From positions 1 through 5,243 of the forward strand of contig JAFZBT010000074.1 of NCBI GenBank assembly GCA_017561615.1: DNA of 5,243 bases. Reading direction: 5' to 3'. Position numbers and translations under genes: made by a program. The DNA comes from Erysipelotrichaceae bacterium (GTDB lineage Bacteria; Bacillota_I; Bacilli_A; Erysipelotrichales; Erysipelotrichaceae). A model generated the notes under the pieces. That model was given only the letters and a program-made list of their open reading frames with translations, searched no databases and had not been told where the DNA came from. Below, piece after piece: positions 1-5,243 of the stretch; position 1 is the first letter of the stretch, and the number at the start of each line of letters is the position of its first letter.

Positions 1-982
1 CGTTCCAGACGACGGTCTTGGCGTTCTTGACTTCCTCAGCGAACAGTTCGGCAGTCTTCGGACCGATGTCCAGACCCTGCATGTCAGCCGGGATCTCGTC
101 AACGGAAACGACCTTGGTCTCGATCTCCGCATCAATCGGATCCGGGAAGCTGTCAGCGATCACGGTATCAACCGGTAACAGCAGCTTCTTGCCCAGATCA
201 GCAGCCTTCTTGATCATCTCGCCGCAGTATTCGATCTGTTCGGGGTCGACCAGTGATTCGCCGACTTCCTTGCCCTGAGCCTTCAGGAAGGTGTAGGCCA
301 TGCCGCCGCCGATGATCAGGGTATCGCATTTCTCCAGCAGATTGTTGATGACCTTCAGCTTGTCAGCGATCTTGGCGCCGCCTAAGATACCGACAAACGG
401 ACGGACCGGGTTCTCCACGGCATCGCCCAGGAACTTGAGTTCCTTTTCGACCAGGAAGCCGACAGCGCTGGGCAGGTAGTCTGCCAGACCGACGGTTGAG
501 GCGTGGGCTCTGTGAACGGAACCGAAGGCATCGGAGACGAACAGGTCGCCCAATGATGCCCAGTACTTGGCCAGGTCGGGATCGTTCTTGGATTCGCCCT
601 TTTCATAACGGGTGTTCTGAACCAGCACGATGGAACCGACTTCCATGTTCTTAACGGCTTCCTCAAGCTCTTCGCCTCTGGTTACCGGGACGAAGTCCAC
701 CGGGCAGTTGACCAGTTCAGCCAGCCTGGCGGCTACGGGAGCCATGTTGTTCTTCTTCTTGCCTTCTTCGCACTTGACAGGATCCTTGTGGTCGATCTTG
801 CCCAGGTGTGAGAACAGGACTACCTTGGCGTTGTGATCAACCAGGTAGTTGATGGTCGGCAGAGCCTTAACGATGCGGGTGTCGTCGGTGATCTCACCGG
901 ACTTGATCGGTACGTTGAAATCTACTCTGACCAATACGGTTTTCTGATTTACATCTAAATCTCTTACAGTACGTTTAGACAT
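1..982 (-). CDS. pgk: Phosphoglycerate kinase (partial, C-terminal end off the left edge)
   Basis: Cytosolic glycolytic enzyme that transfers phosphate from 1,3-bisphosphoglycerate to ADP, giving ATP and 3-phosphoglycerate. Translating the minus strand from the ATG at 980-982 gives 327 open codons before the window ends, against about 395-400 in the family. Visible motifs are RVDFNVP (residues 19-25) and DDTRI (33-37) of the substrate-binding N-domain, SHLGK (58-62), [23 protein letters not shown], the LGGAKIADK segment opening the nucleotide-binding domain, [18 protein letters not shown] and LDIGPKT. The reading ends in VVWN, just before the usual GPMG. The start is supported by AGGAGGA at 989-995. 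A lysine-rich insert after SHLGK and the YWASLGD string resemble Erysipelotrichia/Mollicutes enzymes. The gene is divergent from the folate operon and has its own promoter. The frame is intact throughout. Confidence 0.97.
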
Positions 983-1089: not shown

Positions 1090-1118
1090 TTGGCGTTTGG
1101 TCCGGGATGCTTTATAAT
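1090..1118 (+). promoter_or_regulatory. Predicted sigma-A promoter of the fhs-fchA-folD-folT operon
   Basis: TTGGCG (1090-1095) matches four of six -35 consensus bases and is followed after exactly 17 bp by a perfect TATAAT (1113-1118). Transcription would begin near 1125, leaving a leader of about 47 bases before the fhs ATG. It is the only good plus-strand promoter seen ahead of the cluster, and the tight spacing downstream suggests that all four genes depend on it. No operator-like inverted repeat is obvious around it. Confidence 0.65.
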
Positions 1119-1159: not shown

Positions 1160-1166
1160 GGAGGTG
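1160..1166 (+). promoter_or_regulatory. Ribosome binding site of fhs
   Basis: GGAGGTG lies 5 bases before the ATG at 1172. This strong site, together with the family-typical N-terminus that follows (TDIEIAQ), shows that the true start of fhs is here, upstream of the in-frame TAG. The GTG at 1340 has no such site. Confidence 0.85.
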
Positions 1167-1171
1167 AGGGC

Positions 1172-2842
1172 ATGTTGACTGATATTGAGATCGCCCAGGC
1201 ATGTGAAAAGAAGAAGATCACCGAGATCGCCGCTGATCTTGGCATCCCCGAAGAAAGTGTCGAGCTTTACGGCAATTACAAGGCCTAGATCGACTATAAG
1301 CTGCTGAAGCAGCTGGCAGACAGGCCCAACGGCAAGCTGGTGCTGGTCACCGCCATCAACCCCACCCCGGCCGGCGAAGGCAAGACGACCACGACGGTCG
1401 GTCTGGCTGACGCCTTAAGACAGCTGGGAAAGAAGTCCGTCGTCGCCCTCAGAGAGCCTTCTCTGGGCCCGGTGTTCGGCATCAAGGGCGGCGCTGCCGG
1501 CGGCGGCTATGCCCAGGTCGTGCCGATGGAAGACATCAACCTGCACTTCACCGGTGACTTCCATGCCATCGGCGCCGCCAACAACCTGCTGGCTGCCATG
1601 CTGGACAACCATATCCAGCAGGGCAACGCCCTCAACATCGACCCCAGACGGATAACCTGGCGGCGGGCAGTAGACATGAACGACCGCCAGCTGCGCAACA
1701 TCGTCGACGGCTTAGGCGCCCGCACCGACGGCACCCCGCGGCAGGACGGCTTTGACATTACCGTCGCCTCGGAAGTCATGGCGGTGCTCTGCCTGGCTGA
1801 CGGGATTACTGATCTGAAGGAAAGGCTGGCCCGCATCGTGGTCGGCTACACATATGACAACCAGCCGGTGACAGCCGGCGACCTGAAGGCCCAGGGCGCC
1901 ATGGCGGCGCTGCTCAAGGATGCCCTGAAGCCCAATCTGGTTCAGACCCTTGAACATACTCCGGCCTTCATTCACGGCGGACCGTTTGCCAACATCGCCC
2001 ATGGATGCAACTCCGTGACCGCCACCCGCATGGCTTTGAAGCTGGGTGAATACGCCGTTACCGAAGCCGGCTTTGGCGCCGACCTGGGTGCCGAACAATT
2101 CCTGGACATCAAGTGCCGCATGGCTGACTTGAAACCCGACGCCGTGGTCATCGTGGCCACCGTCCGGGCTCTCAAGCATCACGGCGGTCTGGCCAAGAGC
2201 GAACTGGCCAATGAGGACCTGCAGGCTTTGGAAAGAGGCCTGCCGAATCTGCTTCAGCACGTCGACAACATCACCAACGTCTTCCATCTGCCCTGCGTGG
2301 TCGCCATCAACCGCTTCCCGACGGACAGCGAAGCCGAACTGAAGCTGATCGAAGACAGATGCCGCAAGCTCGGCGTCAACGTCGCCCTGAGCGAAGTCTG
2401 GGCCAAAGGCGGCAACGGCGGCAAAGCCCTGGCTGAGGAAGTCATCAGACTGTGCGGGCAGAAAAACAGCTTTACATATTCCTATGATCTGGATCTTTCC
2501 ATCATGGACAAGCTTAATGCCATTGCGGCCAGGATCTATCACGCCGACGGCGTTGACCTGGTCGGCTCAGCTGTAAAGCAGCTGAAGCAGCTTGAGGAAC
2601 TTGGCTACGGCGGCTTGCCCATCTGCATGGCCAAGACCCAGTACTCCTTCACCGATGATCCCGCCAAGCTGGGCGCTCCCAAGGATTTCCGGATCACGGT
2701 GCGCAATCTCAAGGTTTCCGCCGGCGCCGGCTTCATTGTCGCGCTGACCGGCGAGATCATGACCATGCCGGGCCTGCCCAAGGTGCCGGCGGCCGAAAAG
2801 ATCGACGTCGATGAAAACGGCGTGATCACCGGACTGTTCTGA
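1172..2842 (+). CDS. fhs: Formate-tetrahydrofolate ligase, interrupted by an in-frame TAG at codon 39
   Basis: Catalyses formate + ATP + tetrahydrofolate to 10-formyl-THF + ADP + phosphate in the cytosol. Read from the ATG at 1172 the frame has 556 codons plus TGA, the family's normal length. The N-terminus (TDIEIAQ, then LYGNYKA) is typical. The P-loop [11 protein letters not shown] is at residues 64-74 with Lys71, and LREPSLGP is at 93-100 with Arg94; these match Lys74 and Arg97 of the Moorella enzyme as I recall it, with a constant offset of three. Further family blocks are [62 protein letters not shown] and the C-terminal ITGLF. Codon 39 (1286-1288) is TAG where the family has lysine. Unless TAG is read through, translation yields a 38-residue peptide, or a 500-residue protein if it restarts at the GTG at 1340, which lacks a ribosome binding site. 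The absence of any other damage argues for a very recent mutation, a sequence error or functional readthrough. It could equally be catalogued as a pseudogene. Confidence 0.9.
1286..1288 (+). other. In-frame amber codon within fhs
   Basis: The reading is GCC TAG ATC, giving Tyr-Lys-Ala-stop-Ile-Asp where the family has Tyr-Lys-Ala-Lys-Ile. One base, T1286 in place of A, would restore AAG lysine. No other gene that ends in this window uses TAG: the stops are TGA (fhs, fchA, folT) and TAA (folD and the right-edge gene). The codon itself is plain in the sequence; its cause is not. Confidence 0.9.
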
Positions 2843-2845
2843 AAT

Positions 2846-2853
2846 GAGATGAT
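2846..2853 (+). promoter_or_regulatory. Probable ribosome binding site deciding the fchA start
   Basis: GAGATGAT differs by one base from GAGGTGAT, the anti-16S complement. It lies 4 bases before the ATG at 2858, with the GAG core 9 bases away. Because it overlaps the in-frame ATGs at 2849 and 2852, it favours 2858 as the true start. Confidence 0.5.
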
Positions 2854-3466
2854 GAAAATGCTGGACAACAATCTGAGAGAATTCACCGAAGCGCTGGCTT
2901 CCAGCCAGCCGGTTCCCGGCGGCGGCGGGGCTTCTTCCCTGGCCGGTTGCCTGGCCGCTGCCCTGGCCTGCATGGTCGGCAATCTGACCGTCGGCAAGAA
3001 GAAATACGAAGACAGCGAAGAAGAAATGAAGCAGCTGATCGCCCGCGCTGACCAGCTGCGTCTTGACCTGCTGGAAGGCATCGAGAAGGATGCCGAAGCC
3101 TTTTATCCGCTTTCCCAGGCCTATCGCATGAATAAGGACGACATCCGCCGCAACGACATCCTGGAGACCTGCCTGGCCAACGCCGCACACGCTCCGGCCG
3201 AGATCCTGAGCAAGGTCTCGGAAGTAATTGACGTTCTGGAAGCCATGCTTCCCATTTCCAGCAGGCTGGCCATTTCCGACATTGCCACGGCAGCTGTGCT
3301 GGCTGAAGCCTCTCTGAAGGGCGCCGCCGTCAATGTGCGCGTCAATACCGCCCTGATGCAGAACCGCCAGATCGCGGAAAGCCTCGATCAGGCGGTTGAG
3401 GAGCTGGTTTCCGTCTACAGCGTAAAGGCGGAAAACCTCTTCCGTCAGGTAATGGAAAGGATGTGA
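2849..3466 (+). CDS. fchA: Methenyltetrahydrofolate cyclohydrolase (cyclodeaminase/cyclohydrolase family, FchA type)
   Basis: A stand-alone protein of the family that also forms the C-terminal half of formiminotransferase-cyclodeaminase. In this context it should interconvert 10-formyl-THF and 5,10-methenyl-THF. The 205 residues are almost entirely helical in character. The family signature PGGGG (23-27) is followed by an alanine-rich helix, then NLTVGKKKY (45-53), and DAEAF (81-85) follows in the next helix. The length is normal (about 200-210) and no formiminotransferase domain is attached. Three in-frame ATGs (2849, 2852, 2858) compete; the last is best placed for the ribosome binding site and starts MLDNNLREF, as relatives do. 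The gene begins 6 bp after fhs and ends 4 bp before folD, so it is co-transcribed. Cyclodeaminase activity in histidine breakdown is the alternative, but no histidine-utilisation genes are present and the neighbours are one-carbon enzymes. Confidence 0.88.
   Translation: MMKMLDNNLREFTEALASSQPVPGGGGASSLAGCLAAALACMVGNLTVGKKKYEDSEEEMKQLIARADQLRLDLLEGIEKDAEAFYPLSQAYRMNKDDIRRNDILETCLANAAHAPAEILSKVSEVIDVLEAMLPISSRLAISDIATAAVLAEASLKGAAVNVRVNTALMQNRQIAESLDQAVEELVSVYSVKAENLFRQVMERM
3458..3466 (+). promoter_or_regulatory. Ribosome binding site of folD, embedded in the fchA stop
   Basis: AGGATGTGA matches the extended Shine-Dalgarno AGGAGGTGA at eight of nine bases and contains the fchA TGA. The folD ATG follows 4 bases later. 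This arrangement suggests translational coupling of the two genes. Confidence 0.7.
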
Positions 3467-3470
3467 CCGG

Positions 3471-4331
3471 ATGGCTAACATTCTCTATGGCGCTCCTGTT
3501 GCTCAGGCAATCAATGAAAGAACGGCTGGCATCGTAAGGAAACTGGCCGCCGTGAACATCGTTCCGACGCTGGCCATCGTCAGGCTGGGCGAAAACGCCG
3601 ATGACATCGCCTATGAAAAAGGCGCAATAAAGCGCTGCGAATCTCTGGGCATGAAGGTCATTACCGTTACCATGAAGGATGATGTCAGCGCTGAGGAATT
3701 CTGCGAAAGGCTGAAGACCCTCAATGACGATCCGGCGATCCACGGCATCCTGCTGTTCCGCCCGCTGCCCTGGCACATCAATGAAGACACCGCCCGCAAT
3801 CTCATTTCCCCGCAGAAGGATCTGGACGGCTGCTGCGACCTGTCCCTGGCCGCTCTGCTTACCGGCAAGGGCGACGGCTTCGCTCCCGCTACCGCGCAGG
3901 CGGTCGTGGAAATGCTGGAATATTACCAAATTCCCGTAAAGGGAGCCCGGACTGCCGTCCTGGGGCGTTCCCTGGTCATCGGCAAGCCGGTCGCGCTGCT
4001 GCTGCTAAACCGCCACGCCACGGTCACCATCTGCCACACCAGAACGGCAAACCTGCAGGAGATCTGCCGGGAAAGCGACATCATCGTCGCCGCCACCGGG
4101 CAGATGGAATCGCTGAACCGCCGCTACTTCCGCGCCGGGCAGACCGTCATCGACGTGGGCATCAGCTATAACGAGAAGAAACAGAAACTCTGCGGAGATG
4201 TCCTCTATGAGGAAGTTGAACCGCTGGTCGATAACATCACCCCCGTGCCCAAGGGCGTGGGCAGCGTAACCACCGCCGTGCTGGCCAATCATCTGGCCCT
4301 GGCGGCTGAAAGGACAATCAGCCATGAATAA
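3471..4331 (+). CDS. folD: Methylenetetrahydrofolate dehydrogenase, FolD family, with an altered cyclohydrolase site
   Basis: Oxidises 5,10-methylene-THF to 5,10-methenyl-THF (reversibly) with NAD(P). It has 286 residues, the normal size. The N-terminal catalytic domain carries Tyr48, and KDLDG holds Asp119. These align without gaps, offset by two, to Tyr50 and Asp121 of E. coli FolD as I recall it. On the same alignment the catalytic lysine (E. coli Lys54) is Ala52, in YEKGAIK, and Gln98 is Phe96, in LLFRPLP rather than LVQLPLP. The Rossmann domain is standard: GRSLVIGKP (165-173), TVTICHTRT, VIDVGIS and ITPVPKGVGSVTTAVL. Known lysine substitutions at this site in the human enzyme abolish cyclohydrolase but not dehydrogenase activity, so this protein is probably dehydrogenase-only, with FchA doing the hydrolysis. 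I recall a clostridial FolD subfamily with the same LLFRPLP motif, so this is probably a lineage trait. NAD versus NADP preference cannot be judged here. Confidence 0.92.
   Translation: MANILYGAPVAQAINERTAGIVRKLAAVNIVPTLAIVRLGENADDIAYEKGAIKRCESLGMKVITVTMKDDVSAEEFCERLKTLNDDPAIHGILLFRPLPWHINEDTARNLISPQKDLDGCCDLSLAALLTGKGDGFAPATAQAVVEMLEYYQIPVKGARTAVLGRSLVIGKPVALLLLNRHATVTICHTRTANLQEICRESDIIVAATGQMESLNRRYFRAGQTVIDVGISYNEKKQKLCGDVLYEEVEPLVDNITPVPKGVGSVTTAVLANHLALAAERTISHE
4309..4314 (+). promoter_or_regulatory. Ribosome binding site of folT inside folD
   Basis: AAAGGA lies 9 bases before the ATG at 4324, within the last codons of folD. Together with the 8-bp overlap of the two genes it supports coupled translation. 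Confidence 0.5.
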
Positions 4332-4997: not shown

Positions 4998-5243
4998 TTA
5001 TTTGTTCAGAGAAACAACGTCGTGAGTTTTAACCCAATCATCGCAAGCAACTTCTAGTTTTCTAAAATCGCAACACACCTTACGATACATCGGCACCCCA
5101 GCAATTACTTTGTTGTATACATCTAATGATCTACTTTGTATTTCCGAAGCATGGATTGAACAATACTTCTCCTCCATATCAACTAGGTTGATATAATTGT
5201 TTGGTTTTCCGCTTAGAGACAGACGGATTGCGATTGTTTCATC
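4998..5243 (-). CDS. Unrecognised protein, C-terminal part (5' end off the right edge)
   Basis: The minus strand is open from the right edge to the TAA at 4998-5000, giving the last 81 residues of a longer protein; no start is visible. The translation looks like natural protein: it includes GKPNNYINLVDMEEKYC, an amphipathic stretch around EIQSRSLDVYNKVIAG, and a C-terminus with two vicinal cysteines (VCCDF), then ACDDWVKTHD and SLNK. There is no signal peptide or membrane segment in the visible part. I do not recognise the family and assign no function. Base and codon use differ sharply from the neighbours, with many A/T-ending codons (ACA, TTA, ATA, AAA), suggesting a different history such as acquired accessory DNA. 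It converges on folT and shares the terminator at 4922-4954. The main doubt is that only 81 codons are visible. Confidence 0.6.
   Translation of the reverse strand, partial: DETIAIRLSLSGKPNNYINLVDMEEKYCSIHASEIQSRSLDVYNKVIAGVPMYRKVCCDFRKLEVACDDWVKTHDVVSLNK

What the first reader, a model, noticed from the sequence alone, without database searches (positions are those of the whole stretch)
1172..1342. In-frame amber codon at a conserved lysine in an otherwise intact fhs
The fhs frame opens with a strong ribosome binding site and a family-typical N-terminus, meets TAG at codon 39 (where relatives have Lys, equivalent to Lys42 in Moorella as I recall it), and then continues for 517 more sense codons with no other lesion and exactly normal length. 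A decayed gene would be expected to show more damage, and the two genes behind it look fully maintained. Possible explanations are (a) a sequencing or assembly error, (b) a very recent nonsense mutation, (c) amber suppression or recoding, for which an AAG-to-TAG site is a one-base change, and (d) restart at the GTG at 1340, giving a protein that lacks 56 residues but keeps the P-loop. No other gene that ends in this window stops with TAG, which is compatible with (c) but is a tiny sample.
Basis: partly seen in the sequence, partly recalled or inferred. Interest (0 to 1): 0.75.

Follow-up and report, generated by a model that had tools for sequence, protein, structure and literature searches.

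The report
One-off stop codon in fhs
A common folate-metabolism gene in an assembled DNA fragment from an uncultured bacterium carries a stray stop codon that its near-identical relatives do not have, which points to a sequencing error or a very recent breakage and not to a new way of reading the genetic code.

Summary
In detail: the fhs frame (1172-2842; formate--tetrahydrofolate ligase, Erysipelotrichaceae-like) has TAG at codon 39 (1286-1288) and is otherwise open and full length. Recoding does not hold up. The three closest protein records (99-100% identical) have Lys there, as do all 120 homologs listed; the 30 closest genome loci read have AAA or AAG. TAG is the real end of fhs in 5 of those 30. 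Release factor 1 is over cut-off in 9 of 10 close genomes (the tenth is cut by a contig end), PylS in 0 of 10, and the closest genome held has 48 tRNAs, none with anticodon CUA. A second private change, Lys309Gln, hits another residue invariant in 120 of 120; the closest sister protein differs at these two places only. A relative has an otherwise intact fhs with one in-frame TAA. I read this as an isolated substitution in one 5.2-kb contig: most likely an error or minority variant, otherwise a very recent null mutation. Reads would decide; none are held.

The parts
1172..2842 (+). fhs (formate--tetrahydrofolate ligase) frame, interrupted by one TAG
   Evidence: NCBIfam NF010030 866.9 bits for the part after the stop, Pfam PF01268 908 bits read with X at the stop
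1286..1288 (+). in-frame TAG, codon 39; Lys in 120 of 120 listed homologs and AAA/AAG in 30 of 30 close loci
2096..2098 (+). codon 309 CAA (Gln); Lys in 120 of 120 listed homologs and AAA/AAG in 30 of 30 close loci; second private change in the same gene
1340..1342 (+). GTG (codon 57), the first possible in-frame restart; no Shine-Dalgarno match of 4 bases or more in the 20 bases before it
1090..1118 (+). promoter-like TTGGCG-17-TATAAT upstream of fhs (10 of 12 matches; 2 such sites found in 960-1400, 0.4 expected)
   Evidence: a consensus match only
1160..1166 (+). Shine-Dalgarno GGAGGTG before the fhs start
2849..3466 (+). fchA-like cyclodeaminase/cyclohydrolase, intact; identical protein occurs on a 5110-bp contig
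3471..4331 (+). folD, intact; one residue (C121) differs from the closest sister record P0124
4324..4842 (+). folT-like ECF transporter S component, intact

Best explanation
The TAG is an isolated A-to-T substitution in one metagenomic contig, most likely a base error or a minority variant frozen into the assembled consensus, in a gene whose normal form encodes Lys at codon 39. In the living population fhs is then intact and the enzyme works normally in the fhs-fchA-folD-folT one-carbon operon. Shown: the stop, its absence from the closest records, the second private change at codon 309, ordinary TAG use in relatives. Inferred: that the base is wrong in the record, and not a real new mutation in the cells sampled.
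For: The three closest protein records, P0003-P0005 (99-100% identical, 556 aa), all have Lys39 and Lys309; P0003 differs from the window at those two places only. In the alignment with 120 homologs these are the only two of 556 positions where the window residue is seen in 0 of 120 and the column is over 90% conserved. Both are transversions at the first base of a Lys codon (codon comparison). Private changes at otherwise invariant columns are common in this metagenome-derived set: 36 of 118 sequences (117 homologs plus the window; 3 length outliers dropped) carry at least one, 13 carry two or more, so errors or transient variants are part of the background. If those were unselected, about 0.03 nonsense changes per gene copy would be expected. 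A second family genome (G592) shows the same picture with TAA at a Gln position.
Against: No reads, coverage or quality data are available. FchA is identical to a database protein and FolD differs from its sister record by one residue that is common in the family (C in 102 of 119), so the rest of the contig does not look error-rich. pgk has one private residue against 27 of 27 relatives, the conservative D49. A real, very recent null mutation predicts the same pattern. That both private changes fall on invariant columns is weak: 300 of 556 columns are invariant, so chance is 0.29.
Confidence: 0.58

Rival explanations
1. A real, very recent nonsense mutation: the sampled strain has lost fhs function (38-residue peptide), with Lys309Gln as a second hit under relaxed selection; the operon behind it is still intact because too little time has passed.
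For: Two private changes at invariant residues in one gene and none elsewhere in it against the closest sister. Before that the gene was under purifying selection: against L150 (93% protein identity) 124 synonymous-change codons and 39 nonsynonymous ones of 556, two of them being codons 39 and 309. fhs is absent or unmatched in 24 of 272 family genomes (incomplete assemblies not excluded), so it may be dispensable.
Against: No decay beyond these two changes; no second record with the TAG among the 120 listed homologs, though a protein database lists no frame through a stop.
Confidence: 0.35
2. Amber recoding or suppression: TAG at codon 39 is read as Lys, pyrrolysine or another residue in this strain.
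For: The frame is otherwise complete with its promoter-like site and ribosome binding site. The window's own genome is not held, so a strain-specific suppressor tRNA is not excluded.
Against: Lys codons in the three closest records and in 30 of 30 close loci; TAG is the real stop of fhs in 5 of 30, folD in 2 of 28 and folT in 5 of 17 relatives read; RF1 matches in 10 of 10 close genomes, 9 over cut-off, the tenth cut by a contig end; PylS 0 of 10 over cut-off, sub-threshold matches of 18.9-23.9 bits in 9 of 10 against a cut-off of 178, probably other class II synthetases (inference); 48 of 48 tRNAs of G596 have other anticodons; 0 of 150 listed fhs matches carry an inner TAG.
Confidence: 0.02
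3. Restart at GTG 1340 gives a 500-residue working or partly working enzyme.
For: The GTG is in frame and the P-loop lies after it; the 500 residues score 866.9 bits against NF010030, over its cut-off of 652.
Against: No Shine-Dalgarno match of 4 bases or more before it (the fchA start shows none either, so the test is not absolute); codon 57 is GTG in 3 of 30 relatives and ATC or ATT in 15 of 30; the missing part is in the Pfam profile and in the solved chains; Lys309Gln would remain in the product.
Confidence: 0.05

Closest known systems
Formate--tetrahydrofolate ligase (FTHFS/Fhs, PF01268, NF010030; solved chains 5a4j, 5a5g, 7xzn, 4ioj, 1fp7)
   Same: Full-length match, 556 residues, in an operon with fchA, folD and a folate transporter
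   Different: One in-frame TAG at codon 39 and Gln for Lys at codon 309 in this record only
Isolated in-frame stop in an otherwise intact gene of a metagenome-assembled genome (error or recent nonsense mutation); example G592 fhs with TAA
   Same: Single stop, rest of the frame intact, relatives have a sense codon one base away
   Different: TAG at a Lys codon here, TAA at a Gln position in G592
Pyrrolysine or other amber recoding (recalled: TAG inside a frame, pylS/pylT, conserved across relatives)
   Same: Only the presence of an in-frame TAG
   Different: TAG not conserved in relatives, no PylS over cut-off, no CUA tRNA in the closest genome

Membership tests
FTHFS (gene identity) | Match to the curated family model over its cut-off | tested here: met
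   NF010030: 866.9 bits against cut-off 652 for the part after the stop; PF01268 over profile 2-556 of 556 with X at the stop
FTHFS (gene identity) | Invariant residues of the family kept | tested here: not met
   Codons 39 and 309, Lys in 120 of 120 homologs, are TAG and Gln; as recorded it cannot be called an intact FTHFS gene
Amber recoding / pyrrolysine | TAG conserved at the site in relatives | tested here: not met
   Lys in 120 of 120 homologs; AAA 16, AAG 14 of 30 close loci
Amber recoding / pyrrolysine | tRNA with anticodon CUA | tested here: inconclusive
   None among 48 tRNAs of the closest genome G596; in G595 only a pattern search, whose one tRNA hit was tRNA-Leu; the window's genome is not held
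Amber recoding / pyrrolysine | PylS (for pyrrolysine) | tested here: inconclusive
   0 of 10 close genomes over cut-off, control over cut-off in 1 of 14 named genomes; the window's genome is not held
Amber recoding / reassigned code | TAG rare or absent as a stop, RF1 lost | tested here: not met
   TAG ends fhs in 5 of 30, folD in 2 of 28, folT in 5 of 17 relatives; RF1 matches in 10 of 10, 9 over cut-off
Nonsense mutation (pseudogene) | Stop supported by reads or by a second record of the strain | not testable with these tools
   No reads held; protein records do not show frames with stops
Sequencing or assembly error | Reads or close records disagree with the base | tested here: inconclusive
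   The three closest records disagree, but they may be other strains; no reads held

The most novel reading that the evidence does not exclude
A strain-specific suppressor tRNA (or near-cognate misreading by tRNA-Lys) in this otherwise unseen strain reads the codon-39 TAG as Lys, so that fhs is still made, perhaps at a reduced level.
Probability: 0.02. Interest if true: 0.5.

Novelty: not a real feature. Interest (0 to 1): 0.07.

Why it matters
It is a useful negative: an isolated in-frame stop in an otherwise perfect gene of a short metagenomic contig is not a sign of recoding when near-identical records have the sense codon and relatives end the same gene with that stop. If the stop were real, it would mark a strain that has just lost formate activation onto tetrahydrofolate while keeping the rest of the operon.

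Tried and rejected
The viral scan gave at most 65% identity and was not used.

Second-change check: FolD C121 looked like a third private change against its sister record, but Cys is found in 102 of 119 homologs, so I dropped it as a sign of error. FchA has four residues seen in 0 of 119 homologs at columns over 90% conserved, but the identical protein is on another contig, so these belong to the species. RF2 (prfB) matches in the RF1 search were listed with an inner TAG or TAA in G580 and G476; translation shows they are the terminal stops. In the same script my reading of the G596 prfB stretch was out of frame and was not used.

Pattern search for CUA tRNAs: 3 hits in 2 genomes, one of them a tRNA-Leu with anticodon TAG, the other two not tRNAs; the pattern was not tested on a known suppressor. 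DNA search with the window's 3' end in G596 and G595 found nothing and had no positive control.

Papers: seven text searches or passages (as listings; passages of PMC10696740 and PMC13156950). None gave a role for the codon-39 lysine; one search returned no paper. I make no claim about what is or is not in print beyond those searches.

Full report
What is there. The window holds pgk (minus strand, cut by the end), then fhs-fchA-folD-folT on the plus strand, then the end of a ToxN/AbiQ-like gene on the minus strand. fhs opens at ATG 1172 behind GGAGGTG, meets TAG at 1286-1288 (codon 39) and then runs 517 sense codons to TGA at 2840-2842. Read with X at the stop it matches Pfam FTHFS over positions 2-556 of 556. 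Codon 39 aligns with residue 42 of chain 1fp7.

What relatives show. A search of the protein database listed 120 homologs (of 7999 scored). All 120 have Lys at codon 39. The three closest, P0003 (100% in the listing), P0004 and P0005 (99%), are 556 residues long and have Lys there. P0003 differs from the window at codon 39 and codon 309 only; P0004 at one more place; P0005 at four more. These are the only two positions of 556 where the window residue occurs in none of the homologs and the column is more than 90% conserved. In the 30 closest genome loci (L150-L179, the top of 150 listed matches from 272 family genomes) codon 39 is AAA in 16 and AAG in 14, and codon 309 AAA in 18 and AAG in 12.

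Is TAG recoded in this lineage? Nothing says so. In those 30 loci the first stop at the homologous end of fhs is TAG in 5 (L156, L157, L158, L166, L168); TAG also ends folD in 2 of 28 and folT in 5 of 17 where it could be read, and fchA in 0 of 30. RF1 (TIGR00019) matches in 10 of 10 close genomes, over the cut-off in 9; the tenth match, in G482, starts at the edge of its contig. PylS (TIGR02367) is over its cut-off in 0 of 10; nine have weak matches of 18.9-23.9 bits against a cut-off of 178.15, while the control is over the cut-off in 1 of 14 named genomes. The closest genome, G596 (93% protein identity), has 48 tRNA matches; ARAGORN on them gives anticodons for all 48, none of them CUA. All of this is about relatives: the window's own genome is not held.

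How unusual is an isolated stop? Of the 150 fhs matches listed one has an inner stop: G592, TAA at a position where the window has Gln. No listed match has an inner TAG. In the alignment of 117 homologs of normal length plus the window (three length outliers dropped), 60 columns have exactly one dissenter; 36 of 118 sequences hold at least one such private residue and 13 hold two or more. Scaling by the codons of this gene, about 0.03 nonsense changes per copy would accompany that level if none were selected against. This is a rough guide, since some private residues are natural variants. It shows that one stop in a gene picked out from many windows needs no special mechanism.

Error or real mutation? 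For an error: the stop and the Gln are both single-base transversions, absent from the closest records, in a short contig (5243 bp, the contig length listed for the window's FolD; that the window is the whole contig is inference). For a real mutation: the rest of the contig looks clean. FchA is identical to a database protein found on a 5110-bp contig, probably the contig of P0003, which has the same length (inference); FolD differs from P0124 at C121 only, a residue found in 102 of 119 homologs; pgk has one conservative private residue, D49, against 27 of 27 relatives. Against L150 the gene shows 124 synonymous-change codons and 39 nonsynonymous ones of 556, so it was under purifying selection until very recently. 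The two readings cannot be separated without reads. I favour error or a minority variant in the consensus (0.58) over a real recent nonsense mutation (0.35), mainly on base rates.

Restart. GTG 1340 is the first possible restart; it has no Shine-Dalgarno match of four bases or more in the 20 bases before it. The start of fchA shows none either, so this is not decisive. Codon 57 is GTG in 3 of 30 relatives. A 500-residue product would lack a part that belongs to the family profile and would keep Gln309.

Verdict. The sequence feature exists in the record, but it is most likely not a biological feature; at most it is a fresh loss of function. Recoding is very unlikely (0.02).

Noticed in passing
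window 2096-2098: Codon 309 of fhs is CAA (Gln) where 120 of 120 listed homologs have Lys: a second private change in the same gene.
   Followed up: yes
window 4998-5243, minus strand: C-terminal part (81 aa) of a ToxN/AbiQ-like protein (Pfam PF13958, E 5.7e-8; PADLOC AbiQ, E 2.7e-9), the toxin kind of type III toxin-antitoxin systems; its start and any antitoxin repeats lie beyond the window. A DNA search of two close genomes found nothing but had no positive control.
   Followed up: partly
L266 (G592:C26), fhs: An otherwise intact fhs with one in-frame TAA at a position where the window has Gln: the same kind of isolated stop in another genome of the family.
   Followed up: partly
window 2-982 and L150, L151: pgk lies beside the fhs-fchA-folD group within the fetched stretch in the window and in the two closest loci only (2 of 30); in 16 of the other 28 loci a folT-like gene (plus one more without pgk, 17 in all) is read near fhs instead, so the neighbourhood of fhs differs between sub-lineages.
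   Followed up: no
window 3831-3833: FolD codon 121 is TGC (Cys) where the closest sister record has Gly; Cys is common in the wider family (102 of 119).
   Followed up: yes
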